Shown one piece after another: positions 1,839-37,604 of a stretch of 64,000 bases of DNA; within the stretch, counting starts at the first letter, position 1, and the number at the start of each line of letters is the position of its first letter. The notes under the pieces are model-generated. The model made no database searches. It was given only the letters and a program-made list of their open reading frames with translations, and was not told the DNA's origin. Both the position numbers and the translations under genes were made by a program. This DNA is from Glycomyces arizonensis DSM 44726 (GTDB lineage Bacteria; Actinomycetota; Actinomycetes; Mycobacteriales; Micromonosporaceae). The DNA lies in contig NZ_AXWO01000003.1 of assembly GCF_000482705.1 (NCBI RefSeq), forward strand, positions 1 to 64,000, written 5' to 3'.

Positions 1839-1840
1839 CC

Positions 1841-1931: not shown

Positions 1932-1935
1932 TGGT

Positions 1936-1952
1936 GGTTACCCTAGACTACC
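1936..1952. repeat. Candidate recombinase arm-type site, left copy
   Basis: GGTTACCCTAGACTACC, lying 5 bp inside the left core repeat, recurs as GGTTACCCTGACTACC at 42280-42295 near the right border. The two differ by one inserted A and have the same orientation. In the excised circle they would flank the attachment core. Short direct repeats flanking attP are the usual form of integrase arm or excisionase sites; that role is inferred. Confidence 0.4.
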
Positions 1953-1963
1953 TGCGAGAACGC

Positions 1964-4236: not shown

Positions 4237-4240
4237 ATGA
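3839..4240 (+). CDS. Possible small gene coupled to methyltransferase 1 (unrecognised)
   Basis: An open frame of 133 codons begins with ATG seven bases after AAGGGA, a plausible ribosome site, and ends in an ATGA overlap with the methyltransferase start at 4237. That arrangement is what suggests it may be real. Against it, the predicted protein is rich in Arg, Ser and Thr, has no motif or predicted structure I recognise, and third-position G/C bias is weaker than in the neighbouring genes. It may be a short leader gene, a decayed gene or chance. Confidence 0.25.
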   Translation: MNDLTPRGLCLTNRGRIRSTSSPTLKTGTWRASRCVATVAVSVSARHDGSGQSYRLTPGYQTRAYARRGNVAESSTAHLCVTADPPAKRVTESNLCLRTETSRNGSAAAPAVPQRPVGLSVRVFSPTATGVVR

Positions 4241-7200
4241 CGGCCCGCGGTGAACACGCCGCCGTCAGTCTCGAAGGCGACCTGATCTCGCATGAACTGC
4301 TCCGCCGTATCGAGACGGGTCGGGAACTGGACGGCGTGAAACCCGCCGACTACGGCGCGGTCGGTCGCCGGAGCGTCTCCGACGAGGCGGAACGGTCCTG
4401 GGACTACCTCAAGACCGCGTGGACCGACCTCCGGGGAACGATTTCGGCCGCAGACAGGCCGATCGACACGACCGGCGCGGCGCGGCGGTTGTGGATCGAA
4501 CCGCTGTTGGCCGAACTCGGCTTCGGCCGTCCGGCATTGACCGGCGGCGGCATCGACTCCGACGACGGTCAGAAGCGCTTCCGGATCGCTCACCAGTGGA
4601 CGCATGTCCCAATTCACATGGTTGACTGGGGGATCGGGCTGGAGGACCGGCATGCCGGACGGCCGGCGCCGCACTCGGTGCTGCAGGAGTGCCTGAATTC
4701 GACGGATCAGCGCCTGTGGGGGATAGTCACCAACGGCCGCGTGGTTCGTTTGCTCCGCGACTCGACGGCCATCGCCGGGACCGCGTACGTGGAGTTCGAT
4801 CTCGAGACCATCTTCGATCATGAGCTGGTCAACGAGTTCATTCTGCTCTACAGGTTGTTCCACGTCTCCCGGTTCGAGGTCGCCGAGGATGCTCCGCCGT
4901 CGAGCTGTTGGCTTGAGAAGTGGCGGGCCAGCGCCATCCAGATCGGCATTCGAGCGCGCGACCAGATGAGGGATGGCGTCAGGGACGCCATCACCACCCT
5001 CGGCACCGGCTTCCTGAGCCACCCGGCGAACGGCCGCCTGATCGACGATCTCGACGCCGAACGGTTCCACCGGGCCCTGCTGAGGACGATCTACCGGCTG
5101 CTGTTCTGGTTCGTCGCGGAGGACAAGGGTTTGCTGCACCCCCAGGACGCGGCGGCATCGGCCAAGGAGCGTTATCGGAGGTACTACTCGTCGGCCAGGC
5201 TGCGGGCGCATGCAAGGCGACGCCGGGGGACGACCCACGGCGATCTGTACCAGGGGTTGAAGCTCGTGCTCGACGCGCTCGGCAGCGAGGATGGGCAGCC
5301 GAAGCTCGCACTTCCCGGTTTGGGCGGGATCTTCGAGGCCACCGAGGCCGATGAGGTTCTGGACGGCCTCCACCTGGCGAATCAGGACCTACTTCGGGCA
5401 GTGCGAGCGCTGGCGGTCTTGCGGGACAAGAAGACGCAGCGAAACCGGGTGATCGACCACCGTCATCTCGAAGCCGAGGAACTGGGGTCGGTGTACGAGT
5501 CGCTCCTGGAGCTGGTGCCGAAGTACAGCCCAGTGGAGAGGCGGTTCGAGCTGGCCGAGCTGGCCGGTAACCAGCGAAAATCCTCGGGGACCTATTACAC
5601 CCCCGCGAACCTCATCGAGCGCCTGCTCGACATGGCGCTGGACCCGGTCATCGATGCGGCCGTGAAGCGCGGCGAAGCGAGAGTCGAGTCCGATCCGACT
5701 ATCGCTGTCGCGGAGGAGCTGCTGAAGCTGAAGGTCTGTGACCCTGCATGTGGGAGCGCTCACATCCTTGTGGCCGCGGCACGGCGAATCGCCAAGCGGC
5801 TGGCAGCGGTCAGAGAGCGAAACCCTGAGCCGACCCCGAGGGCGCTGAGGTCGGCTCTCCGGGAGGTGATCGGCCGATGCGTCTACGGCGTCGACATCAA
5901 CCCGATGGCCGTCGAGTTGGCGAAGGTCGCGCTGTGGATGGAGTCGCTGGAGCCGGGGAAGGCTCTCGACTTCCTTGACGCGCATATCAAGAGCGGCAAC
6001 TCGCTCATCGGTGCCCGCCCGGTGCTCATGGCCGGGGGCATCCCGGATGCGGCGTGGAACCCGATTGAAGGGGATGACAAGACCGCCGCTCGGGAGTTGA
6101 AGAAGCGGAACAGGAAGGAACGGGAGAGTCGTGAGCGCGGGGCCGAACGCCTCGACGGGCTCTTCGAGCTGGAGTGCGGGACCGCCCGGTCGAATGTGGT
6201 TCTGGGGAGGCGTACTCGCCAGATCCTGGAGGCGCCGTCGGAGAGCGTACGGGACGCGAAGCGAAAGCGGGCCGCTTACCGGCGGCTGCTGACGCTTGGC
6301 GAGTACGAGAAGGAGCGGCTTCTCGCGGATACGTGGTGTGCAGCGTTCTTCTGGAAGAAGGAGCCGGGTTCTGATCTCAGTCTCGCCCCTACGGAAGGAA
6401 CCTACCGGGAGCTTGAGCGGGCCGGATTCGACAACCTGATCGGACAGGCCATCGCGGAGAAGTCGGCGGTGCTGCGGGACGCCAATCGCTTCTTCCACTG
6501 GCACTTGGAGTTTCCCGAGGTCTTTCTTACTGACCAGGGCGAGACCGCCAACGGGCTCACCGGGTGGGCCGGCGGCTTCGACGCCGTTCTCGCCAATCCT
6601 CCTTGGGACAAGCTCGAATTCGAGGACAAAAAGTACTTCAGTGTCGCTGCCCCAGAGATCGCCGAGATCTCAGGACGCGCTCGGAAGCAGAGGATCGCGG
6701 AGTGGGAGCTTCGGAGCCCATCGGGCAGCGCTCAGTATCGCGCGGCGATCCGCAAGGTCAAGGGTACGTTTCAGTTCGCCAGTGCCTCGGGATCATTTCC
6801 GCTGTGCCAGAAAGGGCTCACTGTCCCGGGGGTCAACTCGCTCAACACTGACCAGCTGTTCGCCGAGCTGTTCCGTGATCTCGGATCGAGCGGTTCGTGG
6901 GTGGGATGCATCGTCCCGAGCAACATCGCCACCGGAGCCGGAGCGCAGTATCTCTTCGCGGATCTCACGGGCAGTGGGTCGCTGGTCAGTATCTTCGATT
7001 TTGAGAACGCCCAGAGGAAGTTCTTTCCCGGGGCGGATTCTCGAGTGAAATTCTGCCTCCTGACCGCTACCGGCCGGGGATCACGTGCTGAAGAGACAAG
7101 ATTCGCCTTCTTTCTCAACGAGGTCGACCAGATCGACGACGCCCGGCGCGTTTACAGCCTCACGCCAGAGGAGCTGCACCTGATCAGTCCGAACACCGGA

Positions 7201-8298
7201 ACGCTCCCGATCTTCCGTGATCCGCGGGATGCCCGTATCACAGCCGAGATCTTCAAACGTGTCCCGGTGTTCTGGAACGAGACGGTCGCGGACGGCAACC
7301 CTTGGGGTGTCCGATTCAAGAACCTCTTCAACATGACCGATGACTCGGATCTCTTTCAGGGAAGGGAACGGCTGGAAACTGAAGGCTGGTCACTTCGAGG
7401 CAACGTCTACGAACTCGGTGGTAAAGCGATGCTGCCGCTTTATGAAGCCAAGATGGTCGACTTCTTTGACCACCGAACTGCGGATGTAGTGAAGAGCGAC
7501 ACAGCGCTCAAACGGCAGAATCAGCCGAGGTACCTCTCAGCCGCGGAGAAACGTGATCCGGAAAGAAGCGCACAGCCTTTGAGCTGGATAGCGCAAGAAT
7601 TCGTGGAAGACGAGCTTGATAGAGCCGGTTGGGATAGCGGTTGGATCGCGGGATGGTGCGATGTCACGAGTGCCACGAATGAACGCACGGCGATCCCCTG
7701 CTTGATACCGCGAACCGCCGCCGGACACACGTTCCCTGTGATGCTTCCAAGGAGTTCCGCTCGTGAGACGGGAGCGTTGATTGCAGAGCAGAGCTCGTAT
7801 GTATTCGACTACGTGAGTCGGCAAAAGGTAAGCGATGCGCACATGAAGCTGTTTATCTGGAAGCAGCTTCCTGTGCACCCGCCCGAGATTCTGGCCGGTT
7901 GCGACAGCTTCCTGATGCCTCGCGTATCCGAGCTGGTGTATACGGCCGCTGACATGAGGCCGTTCGCCGAAGATCTTGGCGATCAAGGTGAACCGTTCGT
8001 CTGGGATGCGGAGCGGCGGTCGGTGATGCGAGCGGAATTGGACGCGCTTTTCTTTCACCTCTACGAAGTTGAGCGGGAAGATGTCGACTACATCATGGAG
8101 ACGTTCCCCATTGTCAGGAAGAAGGATATCGCCCAGTTTGGAAGCTTTCGGACCAAGGAGCTGACCCTTGAGGCATACGACCAGATGGCGGCGGCGGGGA
8201 TCTCGGCCGCAAACCCGCCTCTCGACGGTGAGGACTTCGTCTCGCGCTTGGCGCCACCGCCCGGACATGGCCCCCGCCATGCTCCTCGGGTGTGCTGA
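4237..8298 (+). CDS. DrmMI/PglX-like adenine-specific DNA methyltransferase, copy 1
   Basis: A 1353-residue Eco57I-type N6-adenine methyltransferase: an alpha-helical N-terminal half, the YYTPANLIERLLD entry to the methylase core, motif I DPACGSAHIL at residue 502, VDINPMAVELAK, and catalytic motif IV NPPW at 787. A target-recognition region follows (about 800-1240), and the C-terminus ends YDQMAAAGISAANPP. It is closely similar to the gene at 17641 in both ends but diverges in the recognition region, implying a different target. Motif I has Ala508 where copy 2 and most relatives have Gly (DPACGSGH), which may affect SAM binding. It precedes the kinase-helicase gene by 215 bp. The ATG at 4237 aligns with the copy 2 start. 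Confidence 0.88.
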   Translation: MTARGEHAAVSLEGDLISHELLRRIETGRELDGVKPADYGAVGRRSVSDEAERSWDYLKTAWTDLRGTISAADRPIDTTGAARRLWIEPLLAELGFGRPALTGGGIDSDDGQKRFRIAHQWTHVPIHMVDWGIGLEDRHAGRPAPHSVLQECLNSTDQRLWGIVTNGRVVRLLRDSTAIAGTAYVEFDLETIFDHELVNEFILLYRLFHVSRFEVAEDAPPSSCWLEKWRASAIQIGIRARDQMRDGVRDAITTLGTGFLSHPANGRLIDDLDAERFHRALLRTIYRLLFWFVAEDKGLLHPQDAAASAKERYRRYYSSARLRAHARRRRGTTHGDLYQGLKLVLDALGSEDGQPKLALPGLGGIFEATEADEVLDGLHLANQDLLRAVRALAVLRDKKTQRNRVIDHRHLEAEELGSVYESLLELVPKYSPVERRFELAELAGNQRKSSGTYYTPANLIERLLDMALDPVIDAAVKRGEARVESDPTIAVAEELLKLKVCDPACGSAHILVAAARRIAKRLAAVRERNPEPTPRALRSALREVIGRCVYGVDINPMAVELAKVALWMESLEPGKALDFLDAHIKSGNSLIGARPVLMAGGIPDAAWNPIEGDDKTAARELKKRNRKERESRERGAERLDGLFELECGTARSNVVLGRRTRQILEAPSESVRDAKRKRAAYRRLLTLGEYEKERLLADTWCAAFFWKKEPGSDLSLAPTEGTYRELERAGFDNLIGQAIAEKSAVLRDANRFFHWHLEFPEVFLTDQGETANGLTGWAGGFDAVLANPPWDKLEFEDKKYFSVAAPEIAEISGRARKQRIAEWELRSPSGSAQYRAAIRKVKGTFQFASASGSFPLCQKGLTVPGVNSLNTDQLFAELFRDLGSSGSWVGCIVPSNIATGAGAQYLFADLTGSGSLVSIFDFENAQRKFFPGADSRVKFCLLTATGRGSRAEETRFAFFLNEVDQIDDARRVYSLTPEELHLISPNTGTLPIFRDPRDARITAEIFKRVPVFWNETVADGNPWGVRFKNLFNMTDDSDLFQGRERLETEGWSLRGNVYELGGKAMLPLYEAKMVDFFDHRTADVVKSDTALKRQNQPRYLSAAEKRDPERSAQPLSWIAQEFVEDELDRAGWDSGWIAGWCDVTSATNERTAIPCLIPRTAAGHTFPVMLPRSSARETGALIAEQSSYVFDYVSRQKVSDAHMKLFIWKQLPVHPPEILAGCDSFLMPRVSELVYTAADMRPFAEDLGDQGEPFVWDAERRSVMRAELDALFFHLYEVEREDVDYIMETFPIVRKKDIAQFGSFRTKELTLEAYDQMAAAGISAANPPLDGEDFVSRLAPPPGHGPRHAPRVC

Positions 8299-8513: not shown

Positions 8514-11500
8514 GTGGCCCGCAACACCCCTGATGTTATCGGCGGCCGATTCGAGCTCCGTCGGCCTCTTGGATCGGGAATGTCCGAGGTCTACGAGGCC
8601 GTCGACCTCGAGGCCGCGCCGGATGCGCCCGACCGCGAGGTGGCACTCAAACTCATCACCCTAGACCACGTGCGGACCACGGCCGCCACGCCGAGATTCA
8701 ACCGGCTCGTCGAGCGGTTCCAGCGCGAGATCGACATCATGAGCCGCATCGACCATCCAGGCGTGCCGCGCTTCATCGGCTCCGGCCACGACGACGCACG
8801 CAACCAGCCGTACCTGGCCATGCAGCTCCTCCACGGACCCACGCTCGCCGAGGTCATCGCCGAGGGCGGGGCACTGCCGGTGCGGGCGGTCGCGGGCATC
8901 GCGGGCCAGATCGCCGATGTCCTCGCCGTCTCCCACGCGGCCGACGTCCTGCACCGCGACCTCAAACCCGCCAACGTGATCCTCGAAGACGACGGCCGCG
9001 CGATGGTCCTCGATTTCGGCGTCGGCCTGCTCATCGGCCCCGACGCCCCCGCGCGTCTCACCTCGACCGGCACGGCTGTGGGGACCCACAAGTACATGTC
9101 GCCCGAGCAGGCGACCGGAGGCGAGCTCACCGTGAGCAGCGACCTCTACAACCTCGGCTGCCTGCTGTACGAGCTCCTGTCGGGCACTCCTCCGTTCCCC
9201 GAGGGGACCGACCATCAGATCCTCCTCGCCCACGTCCAGCGGGAACCGTCCGGCCTGGAACTCATGCGCGGCGACCTGCCGGGGGCGCTGGCCTCCCTCG
9301 TGGACGCTCTCCTCGAAAAGGATCCCAAGGACCGTCCACCGAACGCTCGCTCGGTCGCCGACCGGTTGCGCGCCATCGCGTACGCCGCCCCAGTCGAACC
9401 CCTGCCCGCATCGCTCTGCCACGGCGACCCGGCCGAGGTCCTCGGGCCACCCGAGTCGCCCGGCGAGGCGTCGGCGCGCCTTCCCGAAGCGCACCCATCC
9501 GCAGCGGCCGACGAATCGGAGCAGCCGATGAACGTCTTCGAGATCCACCGGAAGCTGATCGACGAATACCAGCGCTTCACCTCCGGCGGCGTGATCATCG
9601 ACGACCCGAGGATCAAGCAGTTCATCGAGCGGGACATGAGCGACGGCACGCAGTGGCCGCACCCGTTCGTCGCCCTCAACCCCTTCTTCGAACCCGGAGG
9701 CCGGGTCGACGAGCTCGCCGCCGAAGGGCTGCTCCACCCCGAGTGCGCGAACATCTTCCAGACCGGCAAGCCCGAAGGCGCCCCCGCCTGCGACGGTGAC
9801 CCCATCGTCCTGCACCGCCATCAGCGCGACGCCATCGAAGCGGCGAAGCGCGGGGAATCCTACGTGCTCACCACCGGCACCGGCTCGGGCAAGTCCCTGG
9901 CCTACATCGTCCCGATCGTCGACAAGGTCCTGCGCGAGCGCGACGCCGATCCGGGGCGCCGCGGCATCCGCGCCATCGTCGTCTATCCCATGAACGCGCT
10001 CGCCAACAGCCAGAAGCAGGAGCTCGAGAAGTTCCTCAGCCACGGCTACCCCGCCGACGGCGAGCCGGTCACCTTCGCCCGCTACACCGGCCAGGAGTCC
10101 GAAAGCGAACGCGAGAAGATCCGCAAGCACCCGCCCGACATCCTCCTGACCAACTACGTCATGCTGGAGCTCCTCCTCACCCGCCCCGAGGAGCGGCGGA
10201 AGGTCATCGGCGCCGCCGACGGGCTCCAGTTCCTGGTCTTCGACGAGCTCCACACCTACCGGGGCCGCCAAGGCGCGGACGTCGCCTGGCTCATCCGCCG
10301 CGTCCGCAAGGCGTGCGACGCCCCCGACGTCCAGTGCATCGGCACCTCGGCGACCATGGCCACCGAAGGCACCCGCGCCGAGCAGCGCCGCGAGGTCGCC
10401 AAGGTCGCCGCCCAACTGTTCGGCCTCGAACGGGAGCCGACGATCATCGGCGAGACCCTGGTGCGGGCCTGCACCGGCGACCCCGACGCCGTCAGCGCCG
10501 GACGCATCGCCGCGCCCGCCGCCCCGGCCCGATACCAGGACCTCGCCGCCGACCCGCTCGCCTCCTGGATCGAGCAGCGATTCGGCCTGCGCACCGACGA
10601 GACCGGGGACCTGGTGCGCCAGGAGCCGACGACGGTCGAAGACGCCGCCGACGCGCTGGCCGAGCAGACCGGCGTCGACGCCGAAGCCTGCAAATCCGCG
10701 ATCCGCAAGACCCTCCTGGCCGGCTCCGCCGCCCGCCATCCCCAGACCGGTCGACCGCTGTTCGCGTTCCGACTCCACCAGTTCATCTCCAAAGGCGACC
10801 ACGTCTACACGACCGCCGAAGACGAGCTGACCCGCCGGTTCACCCGCAACTACCAGATCGAGCTCCCCGGCACCGCCGACGTCTTCGGCCGCGGCAAACG
10901 CCTGTACCCGCTCGCGTTCTGCCGCGACTGCGGTCAGGAGTACCTGACCGTCATCCGCACCACCGACACCCGCACCGGCCGCGCCGAGTACCGGGCGCGC
11001 ATCGACAACGACCTGGTGGAGGACGACCACGTCCAGACCGGCTACCTCTACATCGACACCGAGCGGCCCTGGAGCGCGGACAAGACCGAGCTCATCGAGC
11101 ACGATCGCCTCCCCGACTCCTGGCTGGAGACCGACGCCTCGGGCAACCGGCTCCTTGCCAAGTCCAAGATGGGCCAGGTGCCGCAAGCCGTCCAGGTGGA
11201 CCCGACCGGCATGGAAGGCTCCGGCGTCGACGCCGCGTTCATCCGCGGCCGGTTCCAGTTCTGCCTCGCCTGCGGCATCACCTACGAAGGCGCCCGCGGC
11301 AAGGACTTCGGCCGCCTCGCCGCGTTCAACCAGGAAGGGCGCTCGTCGGCGACCTCGGTCGTCTCCACCAACATCCTCGAGTCGCTCCGCTCGACGAGCC
11401 TGTCGGACCGGGCGAAGAAGCTGCTGGCGTTCGTCGACAACCGGCAGGACGCGGCGCTCCAGGCCGGGCACCTCAACGACTTCGCCCGCGTCGTCCAACT

Positions 11501-14500
11501 GCGCGGCGCCCTCTACCGGGCCTTGAAGCACACCCCCGACGGTCTCGATGATGAGTCGGTGGCTGCCGCAGTGGTCGCCGAGATGGGCTTGGGCACAGGG
11601 GAATACGCCAAGCCGGGCCTGCGCCCGCAGATGGCCGCCCAGGCCCGCCGCACCTTCGAAGAGGTCGTGAACCTCCACCTCCACGTGGACCTGCGCCGCG
11701 GCTGGCGGGTCACCATGCCGAACCTGGAGCAGACCGGCCAGCTCATCGTCGACTACTTCGACCTCGATGAGATCGCCAAGGACGACTGGGGCTCCTCGCT
11801 GCTGGCGGCCGTCGACACCGCCACGCGCCGCGACCTCCTCAAGACCCTCCTCGACGCGATGCGCCGTTCCCTCGCCATCGACGCCGACTGCCTCGACCTC
11901 GAAGCGTTCGACAGACTCCAACGCGGCAGCCGGAACCGCCTGGCCGAAGCCTGGCAGCTCGACGAGACCGAGGACCAGCCCGAGCAGACCACCGTCTATC
12001 CGATGGCCGAACCCAAAGGAACCGACAAGACCTGCGTGTTCATGTCGGGCCGCAGCAAGATGGGCCGCTACATCGGCAAACGGCTCGGACAGGTCCACGG
12101 CCGCCTGTCCATCGACGACCGCCTCCGAGCCATCGCCGAGATGCTCACGAGACTCGCCGAAGCCGGGCTGCTGACCGAAGTGCCGCCTCCGCCGAAGGGG
12201 CGCAGGCCCGGCCGGGGCCCGCGCCGCCCCGACGCGACCGGCTACCGGGTGAACGCCGCCGCCTTCCTCTGGAAGGCCGGCGACGGCCGCAAAGGCATCG
12301 ACGACCCGCTCAACGTCAGCCGCAAGAGCGGCGAAGGCCCGCCTCCGCACACCTACTTCAGGGACCTCTACGGATCCGAAGAGGCCGCGCTCACCAATCT
12401 CCGGGCCAAGGAGCACACCGCGCAGGTCAGCCCGGCCGAACGGCAGGTCCGCGAGGAGCTGTTCCGCTCTGCCGAGCTGCCGCTGCTGTACTGCTCGCCG
12501 ACCATGGAACTCGGCGTCGACATCGCCGAGCTCAACGCGGTCATGATGCGCAACGTCCCGCCCACGCCCGCCAACTACGCGCAGCGGTCCGGCCGCGCCG
12601 GGCGCAGCGGCCAGCAGGCGCTCGTGGTCACCTACTGCGCCACCGGCAACAGCCACGATCAGTACTACTTCGACCGCCGCGACCAGATGGCCGCGGGCGC
12701 GGTCACGCCTCCGCGCATCGACCTGTGCAACCAGGACCTCATCGCCGCGCACCTCCACGCCATCTGGCTGTCCCAGCTCGACGATCTCCAACTCGGCAAG
12801 GCCGTCGACAAACTGGTGGACACCACTGCGCTCGAAGGCGACCGGCCCGACCTCGACGCCCCGATGCCGCTTTACGACCACGTCAAGGACGCGATCGGCT
12901 CGAAAGGGGCTCAGGGGCGCACGCTCGCCATCGCCGGTGGGCTCCTGGCCGAACTCGAGGACGAGCTCAAGCTGACGACCTGGTGGGACCCGGACTGGGC
13001 GGCCGACACGGTCCGGCGGATTCCCGACGACTTCAACGCCGCATTCGACCGGTGGCGCACTCTCTACCAGGCCGCCAAGACCGAACGAGAAGAGCAGCAC
13101 CGCCGCCAGGACGACACCAGTTTGACCCAACGCGACCGTAAGCACGCCGAACGCCGCCGCTGGGACGCCGAGGCGCAATTGCGACTGCTGCGCAATGACA
13201 CCGGCGACGACTTCAACCTCGGCGCCGACTTCTACCCGCACCGCTACCTCGCCAGCGAGGGTTTCCTGCCCGGATACTCCTTCCCGAGACTCCCGCTGGC
13301 CGCCTACATCCCGAGCCGATCCGGCGCCGGACAGGATGGTGACTATCTCCAGCGCGCCCGCTTCATCGCCGTCCGCGAGTTCGGGCCCGGCGCCCTCATC
13401 TACCACGAAGGACGCCGCTACCAGGTCAAGCGCATCCAGTTGCCGCCCAACAAGGGCGGAGAGCTGCCGCTCACGGTCTCGCGTCGCTGCCCGGACTGCG
13501 GCTGCGGACACGAGGAGGCCGAGAACGCCGACGTGTGCAAGATGTGCGACAGGGGCCTCTCGGACGTCTACGACCGGAAGAACCTGCTGGAGCTGCGAAC
13601 CGTCTACACCCAGCGCCGCCAGCGGATCACCTCAGACGAGGAGGAGCGGCAGCGGGCCGGCTACCTCCTGGAGACCTCGTACCGCTTCAACGAGAAGGGG
13701 ACGCGCGGCGGCCGGAACGAATCGGACATCCGTCTGGGAGACGAGAAGCTCGGCCGGATCACCTACGGGGACGCCGCGACCGTCCGCGTCGCCAACCGCC
13801 GCCGCCGGATCGCCGACAAGGACGATCCGGACGGCTACTTCCTCGATCCCTCGGTCGGCGAATGGATCAGCAAGCGAGACGCCGAGGAAGCGGTCACCGA
13901 CGCCTCCGAACTCGCCGACGGCGACGAGGAGACCCGCCTCAAGGTCCGCGTGGTGCCCTATGTCGAGGACACCCGCAACATCGCCGTCCTCAAGCTCGAC
14001 GACGCCATCGACCCTGACCGGGCGCTGTCGCTGATGTACGCCCTCGAACGCGGCATCGAAGCGGTCTTCCAGCTCGAGGACAGCGAACTGGCCAGCGAAC
14101 TGCCCACCGGCGACGACGCCCCGACCCAGTACCTGCTCTTCGTCGAGTCCGCCGAAGGCGGCGCCGGCGTCCTCCGCCAGGTCCAGAGCGAGCCCGGAAA
14201 CCTGGCCCGCGTGGCCCGTCAGGCCTTGGAGATCTGCCACTTCGACCCGGACACCGGCGAGGACCTGCGCAGCGACGACTGCGCCAAGGGCTGCTACAAG
14301 TGCCTGCTGTCGTACGGCAACCAGATCGTCCACGACCGCATCGACCGCCACAGCGTCAAAGACGACCTGATGCGCCTCGCCCGGGCCGAAGTCCTGTCCG
14401 CGGGCATCGGGAAGTCCCGCACCGACGAGCACCGCCGCCTCGAACAGGGCGCCGACTCCAGCCTCGAACGCGACGTGCTCGCCATGCTCAAGTCCGAGGG

Positions 14501-14792
14501 CTACCGGCTGCCGGACCGGACCCAGGTCCTCATCAGCGAGGCCCACGCCAGGCCTGACTTCGTCTACGACCTGCGTGACGGCACCTATGCCGTCTTCGTC
14601 GACGGACCGGTCCACGACCGCGCCGACGTCGCCCTGCGCGACGCCGAAGCCGAGGAACGCCTGATCGAGGCCGGCTGGATGGTCCTCCGGATCCGCTACG
14701 ACGAGGACTGGCATGATGTGATCGCCCGCCACCGGAACGTCTTCGGACCCGGCCGATCCAAGTCGGCCGACGACCGTGAGGAACGCCAATGA
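8514..14792 (+). CDS. Ser/Thr protein kinase - SF2 helicase - DUF1998 - nuclease-like fusion protein
   Basis: A 2092-residue protein starting at GTG after GGAGGA. Residues 10-290 are a complete Hanks-type kinase: glycine loop LGSGMSEVYEA, VALK with Lys46, HRDLKPAN near 146, DFG at 167 and a GTHKYMSPEQA activation region. Residues 440-1400 are a helicase: GTGSGKS near 456, DELH near 575, TSATM near 611, and MELGVDIAE with QRSGRAGR near 1331-1360. A CxxC-CxxC zinc site (about 1659) and a DUF1998/MZB-like Cys cluster (CAKGCYKC, about 1922) follow. The last 110 residues resemble DUF559/Vsr-type nucleases: Glu in SSLERDV, RPDFVYD at 2014 and VFVDGPVHD near 2027. The stop overlaps the DrmD-like start (ATGA). 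Domain calls are firm for the kinase and helicase, moderate for the nuclease. Likely DNA surveillance with kinase control; inferred. Confidence 0.88.
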   Translation: MARNTPDVIGGRFELRRPLGSGMSEVYEAVDLEAAPDAPDREVALKLITLDHVRTTAATPRFNRLVERFQREIDIMSRIDHPGVPRFIGSGHDDARNQPYLAMQLLHGPTLAEVIAEGGALPVRAVAGIAGQIADVLAVSHAADVLHRDLKPANVILEDDGRAMVLDFGVGLLIGPDAPARLTSTGTAVGTHKYMSPEQATGGELTVSSDLYNLGCLLYELLSGTPPFPEGTDHQILLAHVQREPSGLELMRGDLPGALASLVDALLEKDPKDRPPNARSVADRLRAIAYAAPVEPLPASLCHGDPAEVLGPPESPGEASARLPEAHPSAAADESEQPMNVFEIHRKLIDEYQRFTSGGVIIDDPRIKQFIERDMSDGTQWPHPFVALNPFFEPGGRVDELAAEGLLHPECANIFQTGKPEGAPACDGDPIVLHRHQRDAIEAAKRGESYVLTTGTGSGKSLAYIVPIVDKVLRERDADPGRRGIRAIVVYPMNALANSQKQELEKFLSHGYPADGEPVTFARYTGQESESEREKIRKHPPDILLTNYVMLELLLTRPEERRKVIGAADGLQFLVFDELHTYRGRQGADVAWLIRRVRKACDAPDVQCIGTSATMATEGTRAEQRREVAKVAAQLFGLEREPTIIGETLVRACTGDPDAVSAGRIAAPAAPARYQDLAADPLASWIEQRFGLRTDETGDLVRQEPTTVEDAADALAEQTGVDAEACKSAIRKTLLAGSAARHPQTGRPLFAFRLHQFISKGDHVYTTAEDELTRRFTRNYQIELPGTADVFGRGKRLYPLAFCRDCGQEYLTVIRTTDTRTGRAEYRARIDNDLVEDDHVQTGYLYIDTERPWSADKTELIEHDRLPDSWLETDASGNRLLAKSKMGQVPQAVQVDPTGMEGSGVDAAFIRGRFQFCLACGITYEGARGKDFGRLAAFNQEGRSSATSVVSTNILESLRSTSLSDRAKKLLAFVDNRQDAALQAGHLNDFARVVQLRGALYRALKHTPDGLDDESVAAAVVAEMGLGTGEYAKPGLRPQMAAQARRTFEEVVNLHLHVDLRRGWRVTMPNLEQTGQLIVDYFDLDEIAKDDWGSSLLAAVDTATRRDLLKTLLDAMRRSLAIDADCLDLEAFDRLQRGSRNRLAEAWQLDETEDQPEQTTVYPMAEPKGTDKTCVFMSGRSKMGRYIGKRLGQVHGRLSIDDRLRAIAEMLTRLAEAGLLTEVPPPPKGRRPGRGPRRPDATGYRVNAAAFLWKAGDGRKGIDDPLNVSRKSGEGPPPHTYFRDLYGSEEAALTNLRAKEHTAQVSPAERQVREELFRSAELPLLYCSPTMELGVDIAELNAVMMRNVPPTPANYAQRSGRAGRSGQQALVVTYCATGNSHDQYYFDRRDQMAAGAVTPPRIDLCNQDLIAAHLHAIWLSQLDDLQLGKAVDKLVDTTALEGDRPDLDAPMPLYDHVKDAIGSKGAQGRTLAIAGGLLAELEDELKLTTWWDPDWAADTVRRIPDDFNAAFDRWRTLYQAAKTEREEQHRRQDDTSLTQRDRKHAERRRWDAEAQLRLLRNDTGDDFNLGADFYPHRYLASEGFLPGYSFPRLPLAAYIPSRSGAGQDGDYLQRARFIAVREFGPGALIYHEGRRYQVKRIQLPPNKGGELPLTVSRRCPDCGCGHEEAENADVCKMCDRGLSDVYDRKNLLELRTVYTQRRQRITSDEEERQRAGYLLETSYRFNEKGTRGGRNESDIRLGDEKLGRITYGDAATVRVANRRRRIADKDDPDGYFLDPSVGEWISKRDAEEAVTDASELADGDEETRLKVRVVPYVEDTRNIAVLKLDDAIDPDRALSLMYALERGIEAVFQLEDSELASELPTGDDAPTQYLLFVESAEGGAGVLRQVQSEPGNLARVARQALEICHFDPDTGEDLRSDDCAKGCYKCLLSYGNQIVHDRIDRHSVKDDLMRLARAEVLSAGIGKSRTDEHRRLEQGADSSLERDVLAMLKSEGYRLPDRTQVLISEAHARPDFVYDLRDGTYAVFVDGPVHDRADVALRDAEAEERLIEAGWMVLRIRYDEDWHDVIARHRNVFGPGRSKSADDREERQ

Positions 14793-17641
14793 CCGACATC
14801 GCCCCCGGCAGTCTCGTCACCACCCGCGGCCGCGACTGGGTCGTCCTGCCCGAGTCCGAGACGGACATGCTCGTCCTGCGACCACTCGGCGGCTCCGACG
14901 ACGACATCGCCGCGATCTTCCCCGAACTCGAAGGCGTCGAACCGGCCAGCTTCCCGCCGCCGGACCTCGACGACCTCGGCGACGCCGCCTCGGCCTCCCT
15001 GCTGCGCACCGCCATGCAGGTCGGCTTCCGCTCCTCGGCCGGGCCGTTCCGGTCGCTCGCCCAGATCGCCGTCGAACCGCGCGCCTACCAGCTCGTGCCG
15101 CTGCTCATGGCATTGCGCCAGCAGACGACCCGGCTGCTCATCGGCGACGACGTCGGCATCGGCAAGACCATCGAGGCCGGACTCATCGCCGCCGAACTCC
15201 TCGCCTCCGGCGAAGCCAAGGGCCTGGCCGTGCTCTGCTCGCCCGCCCTGGCCGAGCAGTGGCAGGACGAGCTGCGCCTCAAGTTCGGCATCGATGCCGA
15301 ACTCGTCCTCGCCTCCACAGTCGCCAAACTCGAGCGCGGCCTCGAATCCGGGGAGTCCCTGTTCGACCGCTACCCCAACATCGTCGTCTCCACCGACTTC
15401 ATCAAGTCCCCGCGCCACCGCGACCTGTTCATCCGCCACTGCCCCGACCTGGTCATCGTCGACGAGGCGCACACCTGCGTCGCCACCGACGACCGCACCG
15501 GCAAGGGCCAGCAGCTCCGCTACGAACTGCTGCAACGCCTCGCTGCCGACACCGACCGCCACCTGGTACTGCTCACCGCGACCCCGCACAGCGGCAAGGC
15601 CACCGGCTTCCGCAACCTCCTCGGCCTGCTCGACCCGAGCCTGGAGAACGTCGACCTCAAGACCGACGCCGGACGCCGCCGCCTGGCCCGGTACTTCGTG
15701 CAGCGTCGCCGCGTCGACATCCGCCGCTACCTCGACCAGGACACCTCCTTTCCCTCCGACCGGGAATTCCGCGAGCAGACCTACCAGCTCACCCCCGCCT
15801 ACCGGGCGCTGCTCGACGACGCCCTGGCCTACGCGAGAGGCAGACTCACCGCCTCATCCGGCCTGGAACACCGCAAAGCGTGGTGGTCCGCGCTCGCGAT
15901 GCTGCGCTCGATCGTCTCCTCGCCGCGCGCCGCCGCCCAAACGTGCGCCTCCCGCTCCCGCACCGCCCAGGCCGCGACCATCGACGAGGCCGACGCGCTC
16001 GGCCGACCCATTTCCTACGACTTCACCGACGCCGACCGCATCGAAGGGGTCGACGTCTCTCCCGGTGCGGTCGACGACGACCAGGCCGCCGTGCTCGAAT
16101 CGCTCCGGAAGCAGGCAGAGGCCCTTGAAGGCCCCGAACACGACGCGAAACTCAAAGCCCTCACCAAGCAGCTCAAGTCCCTGCTCAAGGACGGCTACAA
16201 CCCGATCGTGTTCTGCAAGTACATCGGCACCGCCGACTACGTGGCCGAACAGCTCACCGACTCGCTCGGAAAGAAAGTCCACGTCAAATCCGTCACCGGC
16301 ACCATCTCCCCGCAGCAGCGCGTCGACCGCATCGAAGCGTTCGCCGCGCTCGCCGCCGAAGACTCCGACGCCCGCCGGGTCCTGGTCGCCACCGACTGCC
16401 TCTCCGAAGGCGTGAACCTCCAGCACCATTTCGACGCCGTCGTCCACTACGACCTCGCCTGGAACCCGACTCGCCACGACCAGCGGGAAGGCCGCGTCGA
16501 CCGGTTCGGGCAGACGACCGACCGCGTCAAGGTCGTCACCGTCTACGGCAAGGACAACGGCGTTGACGGCAAGGTCTTGGAAGTGCTCATCAAGAAGCAC
16601 CGCCAGATCTACGAGACCCTCGGCTACCGTGTCTCGGTCCCCGACGAGACCTCTTCGGCCGTCACCAACGCCGTCGTCGAATGGGTCCTCATGCGCGGCT
16701 CGGGACCCGGCCAGGAGCAGCCGCTGCTCGACGGCATCCTGGAGATCGAAACCGAAGTCGAGCAGGCATGGCAGTCCGCCGCCGAACGCGAGAAGTCCGC
16801 CAGGACCCGCTACGCGCAGGAACCCATCCGCACCGACGAGGTCGCCAACGAGCTCGCCGCCGTCCGCGACGCGCTCGGCGCGGCCGACGACATCGCCCCG
16901 TTCACCAGACGCGCATTGCACTCCCTCCGCGCCCTGATCACCGAGACGGGTGACGGCTTCCGGGCGGACGTGTCCACCACCCCGGTCGGACTGCGCGACG
17001 CGCTCGCCGCCGCACTCGGCGGCGAAGCCGTCGACGGCGGAAAGCCGATCACGTTCCGCACCCAGCCCGCGGTCGCCCGAGGCGAGGCGGCCCTCGTCCG
17101 CACCGACCCGGCCGTGGCCGCGACCGCCGACTTCATCCTCAACGGCGCCCTCGACGACACCATCGACCCGTCCGATCGCCCGGCCCGCCGACTCGGCGTC
17201 ATGCGCACCGCCGACGTCGCCAAGCGCACCACGCTGCTGCTGGCGCGCTTCCGGTTCCAACTGCGGATGCCAGGACGCCACGGCACCCGCCACCTGGTGG
17301 CCGAAGACGCCAGGCTCCTCGCCTTCGAAGGCTCGCCGACGAACCCGACCTGGCTCGACGACCAGGTGACCGCCGCGCTCCTGAGCGCCGCACCGGCCGC
17401 CAACACCGCCCCCGAGTTCGCCCGCAACGCCGCGAAACTCATCCTCGACGGCCTGCCCGAACTCGACGACCACCTGGACGCCACCGCCGACCGGCTCGCC
17501 GAGCGACTGGCCGAATCCCACCAGCGCGTCCGCGCCGAGACCGGCCGCAGGGAGTCGGCCACGCTGGCGGTCACGCCGCAGCGCCCCGCCGACCTTCTCG
17601 GCGTCTACGTCTACCTGCCCGTTCCCACCGGAGCCGCCTGA
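14789..17641 (+). CDS. drmD: DISARM-type SNF2-like helicase DrmD
   Basis: A 950-residue SNF2/RapA-like ATPase. It shows GDDVGIGKTIEAG (about residue 119), LLTATPHSG, a DEAH box in VIVDEAHTC (about 225), and a second RecA domain with IVFCKYIGTADYVAEQL, LVATDCLSEGVNLQ and NPTRHDQREGRVDRFGQ. The long C-terminal part has no motif I know. DrmD is the class 1 DISARM helicase that acts alongside methylase DrmMI; the next gene here is exactly such a methylase. It overlaps the kinase-helicase stop (ATGA) and the methylase start (TGATG), so the three are translated as a coupled unit. Other RapA-like restriction helicases are possible relatives, but the neighbourhood favours DrmD. Confidence 0.85.
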   Translation: MTDIAPGSLVTTRGRDWVVLPESETDMLVLRPLGGSDDDIAAIFPELEGVEPASFPPPDLDDLGDAASASLLRTAMQVGFRSSAGPFRSLAQIAVEPRAYQLVPLLMALRQQTTRLLIGDDVGIGKTIEAGLIAAELLASGEAKGLAVLCSPALAEQWQDELRLKFGIDAELVLASTVAKLERGLESGESLFDRYPNIVVSTDFIKSPRHRDLFIRHCPDLVIVDEAHTCVATDDRTGKGQQLRYELLQRLAADTDRHLVLLTATPHSGKATGFRNLLGLLDPSLENVDLKTDAGRRRLARYFVQRRRVDIRRYLDQDTSFPSDREFREQTYQLTPAYRALLDDALAYARGRLTASSGLEHRKAWWSALAMLRSIVSSPRAAAQTCASRSRTAQAATIDEADALGRPISYDFTDADRIEGVDVSPGAVDDDQAAVLESLRKQAEALEGPEHDAKLKALTKQLKSLLKDGYNPIVFCKYIGTADYVAEQLTDSLGKKVHVKSVTGTISPQQRVDRIEAFAALAAEDSDARRVLVATDCLSEGVNLQHHFDAVVHYDLAWNPTRHDQREGRVDRFGQTTDRVKVVTVYGKDNGVDGKVLEVLIKKHRQIYETLGYRVSVPDETSSAVTNAVVEWVLMRGSGPGQEQPLLDGILEIETEVEQAWQSAAEREKSARTRYAQEPIRTDEVANELAAVRDALGAADDIAPFTRRALHSLRALITETGDGFRADVSTTPVGLRDALAAALGGEAVDGGKPITFRTQPAVARGEAALVRTDPAVAATADFILNGALDDTIDPSDRPARRLGVMRTADVAKRTTLLLARFRFQLRMPGRHGTRHLVAEDARLLAFEGSPTNPTWLDDQVTAALLSAAPAANTAPEFARNAAKLILDGLPELDDHLDATADRLAERLAESHQRVRAETGRRESATLAVTPQRPADLLGVYVYLPVPTGAA

Positions 17642-20600
17642 TGCCGACCCGCAGCGACTACACTGCCGTCACCCTCGAAGGCGACCTCATCGCCCCCGGG
17701 CTGCTCGACCGCATCGCCACCGGCATCGACCTCGACGGCGCCAAGCCCGCCCACTACGGCGCGGTCGGCCGCCGCAGCGTCGCAGACGAAGCCGAACGCG
17801 CCTGGGACTATCTCAAGACCGCCTGGTTCGATCTGCGCGAGACCATCCCAGCCTCGGACCGGCCCTCCGACCCGACCGGCACGGCGCGGCGCTCGTGGAT
17901 CGAGCCGCTGTTCGCCGAACTGGGATTCGGGCGGCTCGCGACCACCGGCGGCGGCATCGCCTCCGACGACGGCCAGAAGCGCTTCGCGATCAGCCACCAG
18001 TGGACGCACGTGCCGATCCACATCGACGACTGGGGAACCGGCCTCGAAGACCGCCACGCCGGGCGCCCCGCCCCGCACTCGCTGGTGCAGGAATGCCTTA
18101 ACACCACCGACAAGCACCTGTGGGGCATCGTCACCAACGGACGGCAGGTGCGACTGCTGCGCGACTCCACGGCGATCGCCGGGACCGCTTATGTCGAGTT
18201 CGACCTGGAGACGATCTTCGACAACGAGCTGGTGAACGAGTTCATCCTGCTCTACCGGCTCCTGCACGTCTCCCGCTTCGCCGTCGACGACGGCGCCCCG
18301 CCTTCGGCGTGCTGGCTCGAGAAGTGGCGCACCACCGCCATCCAGGCCGGGGTGCGCGCTCTCGACCAGATGAAGACGGGAGTCCGGGATGCCATCACCC
18401 TGCTCGGCACCGGATACCTGAGCCACCCAGCGAACGGACACCTCATCGGCAGCCTCGACTCCGAGCAGTTCCACCGGGCACTGCTGCGCTTGACGTACAG
18501 GCTGCTGTTCCTGTTCGTCGCCGAGGACAAGGAGCTGTTGCACCCGTACGACGCCGATGAGAAGGCCAAGGAGCGCTACCGCAAGTACTACTCATCTGCG
18601 AGGCTGCGGGCTCACGCCAGGCGCAGACGCGGAACGACGCACGGCGACCTGTACCAGGGGCTCAAACTTGTGCTCGATGCCTTGGGAAGCGAAGAGGGGC
18701 AACCGAAACTGGCGCTGCCAGGGCTTGGCGGTATCTTCGACCACACCGAGACTGACGAGATCCTGGACGGCTTGCGTCTCTCGAACGAGTACCTGCTGCG
18801 GGCTGTCCGTGCGCTGTCGGTAGTGCGCGATAGGAAGACCCGGCGGAATCGGGTAATCGACTACCGACACTTGGACGCCGAGGAACTCGGATCGGTGTAT
18901 GAGTCGCTGCTGGAACTGGTGCCGAAGTACAGCGTGGCGGAGCGACGATTCGAGCTGGTGGAACTGGCCGGGAACCAGCGCAAGACCACCGGTTCGTACT
19001 ACACGCCGTCGAACCTCATCGAGCGTTTGCTGGACACCACGATTGACCCCGTGATCGACGCGGCCGTGAAGCGAGGGGAGGAACGAGGCGGAGCCGAACC
19101 GGCGCAGGCCATCGAGAAGGAACTGCTGGGGCTGACCGTCTGCGACCCGGCCTGCGGGTCCGGCCACTTCCTGGTGGCGGCGGCGAGGAGGATCGCCAAG
19201 CGTCTTGCGGCCGTGAGGGAACAGAACCCCGAGCCGACGCCGAAGGCGGTGAAGGCCGCGCTGCGTGAGGTGGTCGGCAAGTGCATCTATGGCGTCGACA
19301 TCAACCCGATGGCGGTTGAATTGGCGAAGGTCGCGCTCTGGATGGAGGCATTGGAGCCGGGCAAGGCGCTCGGCTTCCTCGATGCGCACGTCAAGTGCGG
19401 TAACTCACTAATCGGTGCCTACCCGGCTCTGATGGCTAAAGGCATACCCGACGAAGCATGGGACCCGATCGAGGGCGACGATAAGGCCACGGCACGGAAG
19501 CTGAAGAAACGCAACAAGGACGAGCGGACGAAGCGAGAACACGGTGGGGAGCGCCTTTCAGGGTTTTTCGAGCTGGAGGCGGGGGTGACACACTCGAACG
19601 CCGCCTTGGCAAAGCGAATCAGCGCGATCCTCGCAGCACCGGCAGACGGCCTCGGCGACGTCAGGCGGCAGGCCCGCGAGTATGAGCGATTTCAGGAGTC
19701 GCCGGAGTACCGGAAAGAACGGTCGCTCGCCGACATGTGGTGCGCGGTCTTCTTCTGGCCCAAGGAGGCGGGAGAAAGCCAGGAGCTTGCGCCCACGGAC
19801 GGCACCTATTGGGAGCTGGAAGACGCGGGATTCGATAGTCTGGTTGGTCAGGCGATCGCGCGGCACGCCGCTGAAATCGGGGCCGCGAACCGGTTCTTCC
19901 ATTGGCATCTGGAGTTCCCTGAAGTGTTCCGGACGGGATCCGGAACTAATGCCAACTCATCCGCCGGCTGGGTCGGAGGTTTCGACGCCGTTGTGGGCAA
20001 CCCGCCTTGGGAACGGATCAAGCTTCAGGAGCAGGAGTTCTTCGCTACGCGCGATGCGGCGATCGCTGAAGCACCGAATGCTGCCGCACGGAAGCGATTG
20101 ATCGCGCAACTCGAAGAGCTGAGTCCGCGGTTGTATGCGAGTTTCCAAGCAGCCAAGCGTGAATCATCGGGCAGCGCCCACTTCCTCAAGGTCTCTGGTC
20201 GGTTCCCGTTCACGGCCACCGGCGACATCAACACGTACAGCGTCTTCGCGGAGACCGATCGAACGATCACCGGTCCACGCGGGCGAACCGGAGTGATTGT
20301 CCCGACCGGTATCGCCACAGACGCCACCACGCAGCGGTTCTTCAGAGACTTGGTCGAAACCAGGGCGCTCGCAGCGCTGTACGATTTCGAGAACGCCGCG
20401 CCGGTTTTCGCTGATGTCCATCGCTCCTTCAAGTTCTGCCTGCTGTCGATGGCGGGTTCGGCCGCGAGCGAGGAGGAGGCACGGTTTGGCTTCTTCCTCC
20501 ACGACCCGGCAGAACTCGATGACGCAGGGAAGACCTTCAACCTCAGCCCAGACGAGATCCTGCTGCTCAACCCAAACACGGGCACTTGCCCAGTGTTCCG

Positions 20601-21714: not shown

Positions 21715-21903
21715 CACTGGTTGCGGTGTGTTGGCTCGGCGACTCGGTAGGCGGGTGAACGACTCACCGTGACGTACCGACCGGTCCCGCGAATCGCTGA
21801 TGTCGGATTGGCGACAGAACTGGGGTTACGGTTCGACTTACGAGCGTTCGTTTGTCGGAAACGCCGTCTCAGTGGTTGTGTCGTGTGTAGTGCTTCTGTC
21901 ACC

Positions 21904-22731
21904 ATGCGTGTCATGAGCGTGAACCCGTTCCTCACCAGCATCCAGATCGCCCGTCTGCTCGTGCAGTACCGCAAGCGTGCCAAGTACACCCACAAACGGG
22001 CAGCAGACGAGCTTGGGATGAGCGTTTCCAAGATCCGAGACCTCGAACATGCCCGCGCTCCTCACGTCAAGTGGGTCGACATGCTCGGCTTCGCCCGCAT
22101 CTACGGTCTTAGCCCTGAGGAGCAGGAGAACCTGGTCCGGCTCGCTGAAGCTTCAGACACACCGGACATGTTCCACTCGCTCAAGATTCCCTCGGCGTTC
22201 TACACCTTCCTCCAAATGGAGCTCACCGCATCCAAGATCATGATCTGCGAGTCAGAGCTGGTTACCGGCCTGTTCCAGACCGAGGACTACAACGACGCCA
22301 TCCGAGACGACAACGCCCCCAGCCGTAAGGGACCGGCAGGCGCGGCCGGATTCCGGCAGGATCGACAGCGGCAGTTCATGGATCGGCCATGGTTGCCGGA
22401 GATCGTCTACCTGAGCTCGGAGGCGGCACTGCGCCGACAAGTCGGCGGTCCTGAGGTCATGGCGAAGCAGGTCGAACACCTCAAGCAGCTCGACCGGGAC
22501 TTCTCGCTGTTCAAGTTTTTGGTCGTTCCTTTCGAGGCCGGATCGTACCCTTGTGCGGGGACCGCCTTCCGGATCTTCGAGTTCGAGGGCGGGGAGTTCC
22601 CCAAGACGGTGTACCTAGAATCGTTGGAAGGGGCTCGTTACCTGGAGGTGCCTGAGATGGTGGTTTCCTTCCAGAACGACTTCGAAGAGTCCGTCAAGAA
22701 GGCCATACCGATTAAGGATTTCGATCTGTGA
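21904..22731 (+). CDS. XRE-family regulator with DUF5753 (Scr1/BldB-type partner)
   Basis: A 275-residue protein. The N-terminal HTH spans about residues 15-70 (KYTHKRAADELGMSVSKIRDLEHAR), followed by a DUF5753-like domain with MELTASKIMICESELVTGLFQTEDY and VVPFEAGSYPCAGTAFRIFEFEGG. This architecture is abundant in Streptomyces-like bacteria and always works with a small DUF397 protein; here one overlaps its stop by GTGA. Two ATGs (21904, 21913) precede the conserved start, and neither has a clear ribosome site, so a leaderless mRNA is possible. It sits directly after the methyltransferase operon and is the best candidate for local transcriptional control of the island. Confidence 0.85.
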   Translation: MRVMSVNPFLTSIQIARLLVQYRKRAKYTHKRAADELGMSVSKIRDLEHARAPHVKWVDMLGFARIYGLSPEEQENLVRLAEASDTPDMFHSLKIPSAFYTFLQMELTASKIMICESELVTGLFQTEDYNDAIRDDNAPSRKGPAGAAGFRQDRQRQFMDRPWLPEIVYLSSEAALRRQVGGPEVMAKQVEHLKQLDRDFSLFKFLVVPFEAGSYPCAGTAFRIFEFEGGEFPKTVYLESLEGARYLEVPEMVVSFQNDFEESVKKAIPIKDFDL

Positions 22732-26243: not shown

Positions 26244-26247
26244 GGGG

Positions 26248-36463: not shown

Positions 36464-36466
36464 AAC

Positions 36467-37570: not shown

Positions 37571-37604
37571 GATTCGGACTGCTGACATGGAAAGAGAGGC
37601 CGAC

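What the first reader, a model, noticed from the sequence alone, without database searches (positions are those of the whole stretch)
8514..14792. A 2092-residue protein fusing a full Ser/Thr kinase, an SF2 helicase, DUF1998-like zinc modules and a nuclease-like end
Seen in sequence: complete Hanks kinase (Lys46, HRD, DFG), helicase motifs, two Cys clusters, and a DUF559/Vsr-like tail with RPDFVYD and VFVDGPVHD. Known: kinases and helicases are separate proteins in Pgl/BREX (PglW) and absent from described DISARM. A single chain that can phosphorylate, translocate and perhaps cut suggests phosphorylation-gated restriction. This is the strongest candidate for an undescribed component.
Basis: partly seen in the sequence, partly recalled or inferred. 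Interest (0 to 1): 0.85.

Follow-up and report, generated by a model that had tools for sequence, protein, structure and literature searches.

The report
Kinase-fused ARMADA helicase-nuclease defence protein
A bacterial defence machine of a recently described anti-virus kind carries, in one group of actinobacteria, an extra protein-kinase domain built into its DNA-unwinding and DNA-cutting subunit, which suggests that this defence is controlled by phosphorylation.

Summary
In detail: window 8514-14792 (+) is one 2092-residue frame with an intact Ser/Thr kinase (15-276), SF2 helicase motifs, Cys pairs plus an MZB/DUF1998 domain, and a tail whose model matches Vsr endonuclease best. The system, however, is largely known. 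The gene order (YprA-type helicase-nuclease, BrxHII/DrmD-like SNF2 helicase, PglX-like methyltransferase) is that of ARMADA Type I (Bell et al. 2025 preprint, PMC12458937), whose main text holds no 'kinase'. The N-terminal kinase is real: in frame in 10 of 104 related loci besides the window, actinobacterial in all 7 named. In the tree the fused helicases are one clade (SH-aLRT 100); eight checked kinase residues are identical in 11 of 11; kinase dN/dS is 0.14-0.39 in four pairs. The window also has a second, paralogous methyltransferase upstream with a divergent target-recognition region. Most likely reading: an ARMADA Type I restriction-like system whose translocase-nuclease carries a built-in phosphorylation switch, comparable to PglW in Pgl. 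Switch, trigger and substrate are inferred. Verdict: new variant of a known kind.

The parts
8514..14792 (+). Kinase-YprA helicase-Vsr nuclease single chain, 2092 aa
   Evidence: 10 other loci with the same fusion
8556..9341 (+). PknB-type Ser/Thr kinase domain, residues 15-276 (K46, E72, H147, D149, K151, N154, D167, E198)
   Evidence: Pkinase 2e-36; those residues identical in 11 of 11 fused proteins; PknB is the best kinase match among PDB sequences
9384..9527 (+). Fast-evolving linker, residues 291-338, between kinase and helicase; ATG at residue 339 (old helicase start) without an evident ribosome-binding site
9816..10364 (+). RecA1 / DEAD domain, residues 435-617
   Evidence: K460, D577 and E578 unchanged in 101 of 101
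10917..11276 (+). Two CxxC pairs (803/806, 917/920), likely the zinc-binding barrel region, residues 802-921
   Evidence: Cys in 101 of 101; barrel assignment by analogy with PMC12458937 section 7
11757..12266 (+). MarR/ArsR-like winged helix before RecA2, about residues 1082-1251 (weak structural match)
12396..12611 (+). RecA2 / Helicase_C, residues 1295-1366
14031..14306 (+). MZB (DUF1998) zinc domain, residues 1840-1931
   Evidence: C1923/1927/1930 in 101 of 101
14451..14741 (+). Vsr-like PD-(D/E)xK nuclease tail, residues 1980-2076 (D2015, D2030, H2034)
   Evidence: D-D-H kept in 9 of 10 complete kinase-fused tails after inspection
14789..17641 (+). BrxHII/DrmD-like SNF2 helicase, 950 aa, overlaps the previous gene by 4 bases
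   Evidence: PADLOC model PDLC02853 (named DpdE), 1264 bits, full length; DrmD and BrxH models next; NCBIfam DrmD 310 bits, below its cut-off of 610
17641..21714 (+). PglX/DrmMI-like N6 methyltransferase 2, 1357 aa (DPACGSG, NPPW)
4237..8298 (+). PglX/DrmMI-like methyltransferase 1, 1353 aa, upstream; paralogue with a different target-recognition region; motif I reads DPACGSA
21769..22731 (+). HTH_31-DUF5753 regulator directly downstream; possible but unproven member (a DUF5753 protein also lies 2 kb beyond the operon in L010, on the other strand)

Best explanation
This is an ARMADA Type I restriction-like defence system in which the YprA-type helicase-nuclease has gained an N-terminal PknB-type Ser/Thr kinase, most simply once. 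Shown here by sequence: the parts, their order, the single clade of fused members among the sampled relatives, and the conservation of the kinase. Inferred by homology: the two PglX-like methyltransferases mark host DNA at two different motifs; the SNF2 and YprA motors load on unmarked or infection-associated DNA and translocate; the Vsr-like tail nicks or cuts it. Inferred with less support: the kinase is an on-off switch. It autophosphorylates or phosphorylates its partner motor or methyltransferase on infection, or holds the complex off in uninfected cells, as PglW is thought to act on the other Pgl proteins. My confidence in the family assignment is about 0.9, in a regulatory rather than an effector kinase about 0.55, and in the kinase gating this protein's own nuclease about 0.35.
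For: Gene order YprA - SNF2 - methyltransferase on one strand in 69 of 80 fetched genome loci; of the other 11, ten lack one or both partners and one (L017) is divergent. The same set and order define ARMADA Type I. The Vsr-like tail matches the published Type I architecture. The kinase is fused in frame in 10 of 104 related loci plus the window. Fused helicases are one clade: SH-aLRT 100, 1 change against a shuffled mean of 9.2. The 11 kinase domains also group, support 84 only, among 24 kinases. Eight checked residues invariant in 11 of 11. Kinase dN/dS 0.14-0.39 in four pairs. The window's two methyltransferases share 66-90% per 50-column block over columns 1-650 but 18-50% over about 801-1250. 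Precedent, abstract only: kinase activity of PglW is essential for Pgl phage resistance (PMC4365076). ARMADA Type II acts without killing the host and needs its motors and methyltransferase.
Against: No phosphatase or FHA domain in the 30 of 52 candidate flanking ORFs of six fused loci that I scanned, and no domain-sized kinase-clade-specific insert in the SNF2 or methyltransferase partners compared, so a phospho-relay has no visible second half. Most relatives (94 of 104 loci) have no kinase on this protein. L105 has Arg at the tail His but keeps its kinase. The dN/dS values are rough: high-GC codon bias, and one pair (L103/L010) is high throughout. No named ARMADA Type I reference was in my tree, so the assignment rests on gene order and architecture. 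The BrxA-like insert that marks the ARMADA/Druantia lineage was not recovered.
Confidence: 0.6

Rival explanations
1. The kinase is an independent second effector, like the abortive-infection kinase Stk2 (recalled): ARMADA is the first line, and if it is inhibited or overwhelmed, the attached kinase phosphorylates host proteins and stops growth.
For: Kinase is kept in L105, whose nuclease His is changed to Arg. PADLOC's best models for residues 5-291 are of the defence kinase PD-T4-6 (248 bits). A published analysis proposes that the PglW kinases may act as suicidal back-up effectors (PMC12839542 passages).
Against: ARMADA Type II acts without host shutdown. PADLOC holds only defence families, so PD-T4-6 as best model says little; a PknB-type NCBIfam model scores 221 bits.
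Confidence: 0.22
2. The kinase keeps the complex off: phosphorylation suppresses DNA attack in uninfected cells, and loss of phosphorylation on infection releases it.
For: The window carries two methyltransferases with different target regions, one with a changed motif I, so unmarked host sites may be a risk. In Pgl, PglX is toxic without PglZ (PMC4365076 abstract).
Against: No phosphatase seen in the flanking ORFs scanned; unfused relatives do without the kinase.
Confidence: 0.2
3. The kinase and helicase are made as two proteins from one frame by internal initiation at the old helicase start (residue 339), so the fusion is only apparent.
For: 8 of 11 fused genes keep ATG at the ancestral helicase start.
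Against: L011 and L012 have CTG and L104 TTT there, and no ribosome-binding-site-like stretch is evident upstream of it in the window (by eye).
Confidence: 0.08
4. It is a DISARM or Druantia operon with an odd helicase rather than ARMADA.
For: PADLOC gives DruE3 as best model for the helicase and DrmMI, DrmD and DpdE for the neighbours.
Against: Helicase and MZB domain are one chain, not split as in DrmA/DrmB; no DruH among the PADLOC models listed for the neighbours; gene order and Vsr-like tail are those of ARMADA Type I. The solved 2108-aa helicase 9tu7, which I take to be a DruE, scores 169 bits, against 969-2005 bits for the 80 loci found here (different searches, so only a rough comparison).
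Confidence: 0.05

Closest known systems
ARMADA Type I (Bell et al. 2025 preprint, PMC12458937)
   Same: YprA-type helicase with MZB/DUF1998 and C-terminal Vsr-type nuclease, BrxHII-like helicase, PglX-like methyltransferase, in this order; abundant in Actinomycetota.
   Different: N-terminal Ser/Thr kinase on the helicase ('kinase' and 'phosphoryl' have 0 occurrences in the main text; supplements not readable); a second methyltransferase upstream in the window.
Pgl / BREX Type 2 (PglW kinase with PglX)
   Same: A Ser/Thr kinase in one defence system with a PglX-type methyltransferase and a helicase.
   Different: PglW has NERD nuclease, pseudokinase and kinase, and no helicase among the domains named in the passages seen; PglY and PglZ not among the families listed for the window proteins scanned; here the kinase is on the motor-nuclease itself.
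Druantia Type III DruE
   Same: YprA-family helicase with MZB/DUF1998 and a C-terminal nuclease.
   Different: PLD-type tail and DruH partner, two-gene system.
DISARM (DrmA, DrmB, DrmD, DrmMI)
   Same: Shares the SNF2 helicase and PglX-like methyltransferase families.
   Different: DrmA and DrmB are separate genes and the nuclease is typically PLD-type DrmC.
DndF with N-terminal NERD and kinases (PMC12839542 passages)
   Same: Kinase modules fused to a defence protein of another family.
   Different: Different core domain, no YprA helicase.

Membership tests
ARMADA Type I | YprA-type SF2 helicase with the DUF1998/MZB zinc domain in one chain | tested here: met
   Pfam DEAD, Helicase_C, MZB in one frame; Cys conserved in 101 of 101
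ARMADA Type I | C-terminal predicted active Vsr-type nuclease | tested here: met
ARMADA Type I | Gene order YprA, BrxHII-like helicase, PglX-like methyltransferase | tested here: met
ARMADA Type I | No fourth GajB-like helicase with RelE domain following (mark of Type II) | tested here: met
   Next gene is HTH_31-DUF5753. A UvrD/GajB-like gene lies 18 kb away, in a cluster with DrmA/DrmB-like genes
ARMADA Type I | BrxA-like helical insert after RecA1 | tested here: inconclusive
   Model of residues 600-1300 has helices there, but no BrxA match was returned
ARMADA Type I | MarR-like domain inserted in RecA2 | tested here: inconclusive
ARMADA Type I | Place in the Type I clade of the YprA tree | not tested
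   No named Type I reference sequence was in my tree; it holds only relatives found here
ARMADA Type I | Protects against phage | not testable with these tools
   In the paper shown for one Type II system
DISARM | Separate DrmA helicase and DrmB MZB genes | tested here: not met
   One chain
Druantia Type III | DruH partner gene | tested here: not met
   Neighbours are methyltransferases, SNF2 helicase and a regulator; no DruH among the best 25 PADLOC models listed for each
Pgl / BREX Type 2 | PglW with NERD and kinase, plus PglX, PglY, PglZ | tested here: not met
   No NERD match on this chain; no PglY or PglZ among the families listed for the window proteins scanned; not every ORF of the window was scanned
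Hanks-type Ser/Thr kinase (PknB-like) | Lys in VAxK, HRD, DFG, APE-type Glu | tested here: met
   K46, H147-D149, D167, E198 identical in 11 of 11

The most novel reading that the evidence does not exclude
A single polypeptide that signals, translocates and cuts: a Ser/Thr kinase, a DNA motor and a Vsr-type nuclease in one chain, the first YprA-family defence motor under phosphorylation control. It would define a kinase-gated subtype of ARMADA in actinobacteria that works like Pgl and ARMADA combined, and the window's two methyltransferases would give it a double self-mark.
Probability: 0.35. Interest if true: 0.75.

Novelty: new variant of a known kind. Interest (0 to 1): 0.55.

Why it matters
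What kinases do in defence systems (PglW, the MADS kinase MAD6, TerY-P modules) is largely open. Here nature gives a matched set: related ARMADA operons with and without a covalently attached kinase, so what the kinase adds can be tested by removing one domain or mutating one residue. It also links the Pgl/BREX and ARMADA/DISARM styles of defence, and it warns that annotation models call these genes DruE, DpdE or DrmMI.

Tried and rejected
Artefact of assembly or frame: rejected, the fusion recurs in 10 other loci. The antisense 1616-aa ORF at 8661-13511 (-) is probably a shadow of the + gene on high-GC DNA; it was not scanned on its own. Kinase as a separate gene beside unfused helicases: in the 80 loci, whose flanks are sometimes short, further kinase matches (phmmer E up to 1e-5, frames of 100 aa or more) were seen only in L025 and L067, far from the helicase. 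Phospho-reader inserts in the partners: none of domain size; the longest clade-specific inserts are 11 columns (SNF2) and 17 columns (methyltransferase), from 6 fused and 5 unfused SNF2 and 4 fused and 4 unfused methyltransferases. Conserved extra genes: the all-against-all list was cut in output; of 52 candidate flanking ORFs in six fused loci I scanned 30 with Pfam: no phosphatase, FHA or kinase. RNA element in window 1-32000: none at Rfam gathering scores. Model of residues 600-1300: Foldseek gave no significant match and a PDB profile search none. Near relatives: 31 genomes (the window's own, 18 of its genus, 12 of its order); 8 matches at 1e-30, of which the seven others are partial at 31-43% identity. 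Alignments for the structure jobs used the window plus 33 of 34 suitable tails (L027 left out for its odd length) and the window plus 37 loci. Literature: searches listed no paper that by title or abstract start concerns a kinase-YprA fusion; lists were partial (20 of 32, 20 of 77, 9 of 9, 1 of 1, 15 of 24, 5 of 5, 4 of 4, 12 of 6,584). Supplements could not be read; ARMADA was seen only as a preprint.
Full report
Observation. Window 8514-14792 (+) is one frame of 2092 residues starting with GTG. Pfam finds a protein kinase (15-276), DEAD (435-617), Helicase_C (1295-1366) and MZB, the DUF1998 zinc domain (1840-1931). Thirteen Cys, among them 803/806, 917/920, 1659/1662/1675/1678 and 1923/1927/1930, and the helicase K460, D577 and E578, are unchanged in 101 of 101 aligned full-length proteins, window included.

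What the system is. The gene is followed, with a 4-base overlap, by a BrxHII/DrmD-like SNF2 helicase (14789-17641) and, with a 1-base overlap, by a PglX/DrmMI-like methyltransferase (17641-21714). Bell et al. 2025 (PMC12458937; I saw the abstract, sections 5, 6, 7 and 9, the figure legends and found passages) describe ARMADA Type I with this set and order, a YprA-type helicase and a C-terminal Vsr-type nuclease; [quoted passage not shown] In their test an ARMADA Type II system protected against 13 of 80 phages, without host death, and needed all four genes. The words kinase, phosphoryl and PglW do not occur in that main text.

Relatives. A scan of one genome per species for the helicase part returned the best 80 of 163 confirmed loci. 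Helicase, SNF2 and methyltransferase stand in this order on one strand in 69 of 80. Of the other 11, ten (L015, L016, L018, L021, L062, L069, L072, L078, L081, L083) lack one or both partners, on loci that end soon after the last gene seen, and L017 is divergent. The kinase is in frame in 6 of these 80: Lentzea, a Nocardiopsaceae isolate, two Pseudonocardia MAGs, Amycolatopsis, and a Nocardiopsis MAG cut by the contig end. Over all 104 loci with a strong helicase match, 10 are fused. In a sample of the class, 8 of 148 genomes had a match at 1e-100, 4 of them fused including the window's own; in the phylum sample 16 of 198, 2 of them fused. Two of the class matches and one of the phylum's are partial. 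Larger samples failed.

One clade. In a tree of 46 helicases without the kinase part (the window and the 45 best-scoring of 100 full-length relatives; 10 fused), the fused ones are one clade with SH-aLRT 100 and one change of state against a shuffled mean of 9.2 (quick method, LG+G4, long branches present, the window's among them). The 11 kinase domains also group, with support of only 84, among 24 kinases; the next is a stand-alone kinase frame of the window's own genome (L007). The seven fused loci with named hosts are all actinobacteria.

The kinase is maintained. Eight catalytic or structural residues are identical in 11 of 11. Mean pairwise identity is 58% in the kinase and 60% in the helicase start, against 25% in the linker. 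dN/dS of the kinase is 0.29, 0.19, 0.14 and 0.39 in four pairs, the linker always higher (0.30-0.99). Codon bias makes these rough, and in L011/L012 both dN and dS are higher in the kinase than in the helicase and tail. Internal translation at the old helicase start is not general: two of 11 have CTG and one TTT there.

The nuclease is less constant. By aligned columns D2015-D2030-H2034 is D-D-H in 54 of 101 (8 of 10 fused); 47 of 101 differ, mostly in Pseudomonadota by locus title, in a gappy part of the alignment. On inspection L100 keeps the His at the right spacing and L105 has Arg, so 9 of 10 complete fused tails are intact; L015 is cut before the tail. L105 shows that the kinase can persist where the tail nuclease is doubtful.

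The second methyltransferase. 4237-8298 is a paralogue of 17641-21714, 60.7% identical over the length: 66-90% per 50-column block in columns 1-650, 18-50% in columns 801-1250 (the target-recognition region by position, my assignment), 72-80% in 1251-1350. In the first 780 residues the two are closer to each other (75%) than to any of nine relatives compared (at most 58%), but in the recognition region MT1 is nearest to L009 (50%) and MT2 to L100 (51%). That fits a duplicated core with exchanged recognition regions, hence two target motifs (inference). MT1 has NPPW but reads DPACGSA where most have DPACGSG; the methyltransferase of L101 also has GSA, so MT1 need not be dead. None of the six fused loci with flanks shows this paralogue upstream, though L014 and L012 have short upstream flanks.

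Surroundings of fused loci. Of 52 candidate flanking ORFs in six fused loci, 30 were scanned: no phosphatase, FHA or kinase, but defence-type genes such as pPIWI_RE (L009), a RAMP protein (L011), SLATT (L012), a DUF4357-AAA protein (L014) and N6 methyltransferases (L010, L011). So these operons sit in defence islands.

Mechanism. Shown: parts, order, conservation, single clade. Inferred by homology: methylation marks self, motors act on unmarked or infection-type DNA, the tail nicks. DruE, a relative, loads on 3' ssDNA and cleaves long DNA (PMC13192584, passages). Inferred with less support: the kinase regulates the complex. PglW kinase activity is essential in Pgl, where the authors propose signalling to other Pgl proteins, probably by phosphorylation (PMC4365076, abstract and outline only). 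With no phosphatase or reader found, and no domain-sized clade-specific insert in the partners, autophosphorylation or direct partner phosphorylation is more likely than a relay.

Novelty. The system is known (ARMADA Type I); the kinase fusion was not found in print in the searches listed under Tried and rejected, with supplements unread. New variant of a known kind.

Noticed in passing
window 30313-41853 (+): A second defence-like cluster: sigma-70-like protein (PADLOC MzaA), DrmA-like and DrmB-like genes, AAA protein, N6 methyltransferase with a specificity-like end, UvrD/GajB-like helicase. Looks like a DISARM-like system led by a sigma factor.
   Followed up: partly
window 24271-27225 (-): Pair matching PADLOC PDC-M68B and PDC-M68A, with ABC-3C CTD10 and DUF2326 domains.
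   Followed up: no
window 28286-30178 (-): OLD-like AAA/TOPRIM protein.
   Followed up: no
window 480-3517 (-): Two transposase genes (Mutator family, DDE_5) just upstream of the operon. No full-length helicase match in 18 other genomes of the genus, as expected for acquired DNA.
   Followed up: partly
window 4237-8298 (+): Methyltransferase 1 has DPACGSA at the SAM motif; the methyltransferase of L101 has GSA too.
   Followed up: partly
window 14789-17641 (+): PADLOC model PDLC02853, named DpdE, matches this ARMADA-type SNF2 helicase over its full length (1264 bits), so annotation tools may report Dpd here.
   Followed up: no
L101 1-25220: Plasmid pNOCA01 of Nocardioides sp. JS614 (typed conjugative): DISARM drmA/drmB, an unfused ARMADA-type operon and an AAA/McrC pair side by side.
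   Followed up: no
L010 6788-8881 (-), L011 7167-9020 (+): An N6 methyltransferase of different type directly upstream of the kinase-fused operon in two of the fused loci.
   Followed up: no
L105 tail: Kinase-fused member with VDLPGR in place of VDGPVH: nuclease His position holds Arg, kinase intact.
   Followed up: partly
L011 and L012 kinase domains: Kinase dN and dS are both higher than in the helicase and tail of the same genes, which hints at faster change or recombination of the kinase part.
   Followed up: no
L009 22960-25218 (-), L011 3377-6133 (-), L012 3448-4479 (+), L014 16498-18501 (+): Neighbours of fused operons include pPIWI_RE, a RAMP protein, a SLATT protein and a DUF4357-AAA protein.
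   Followed up: no
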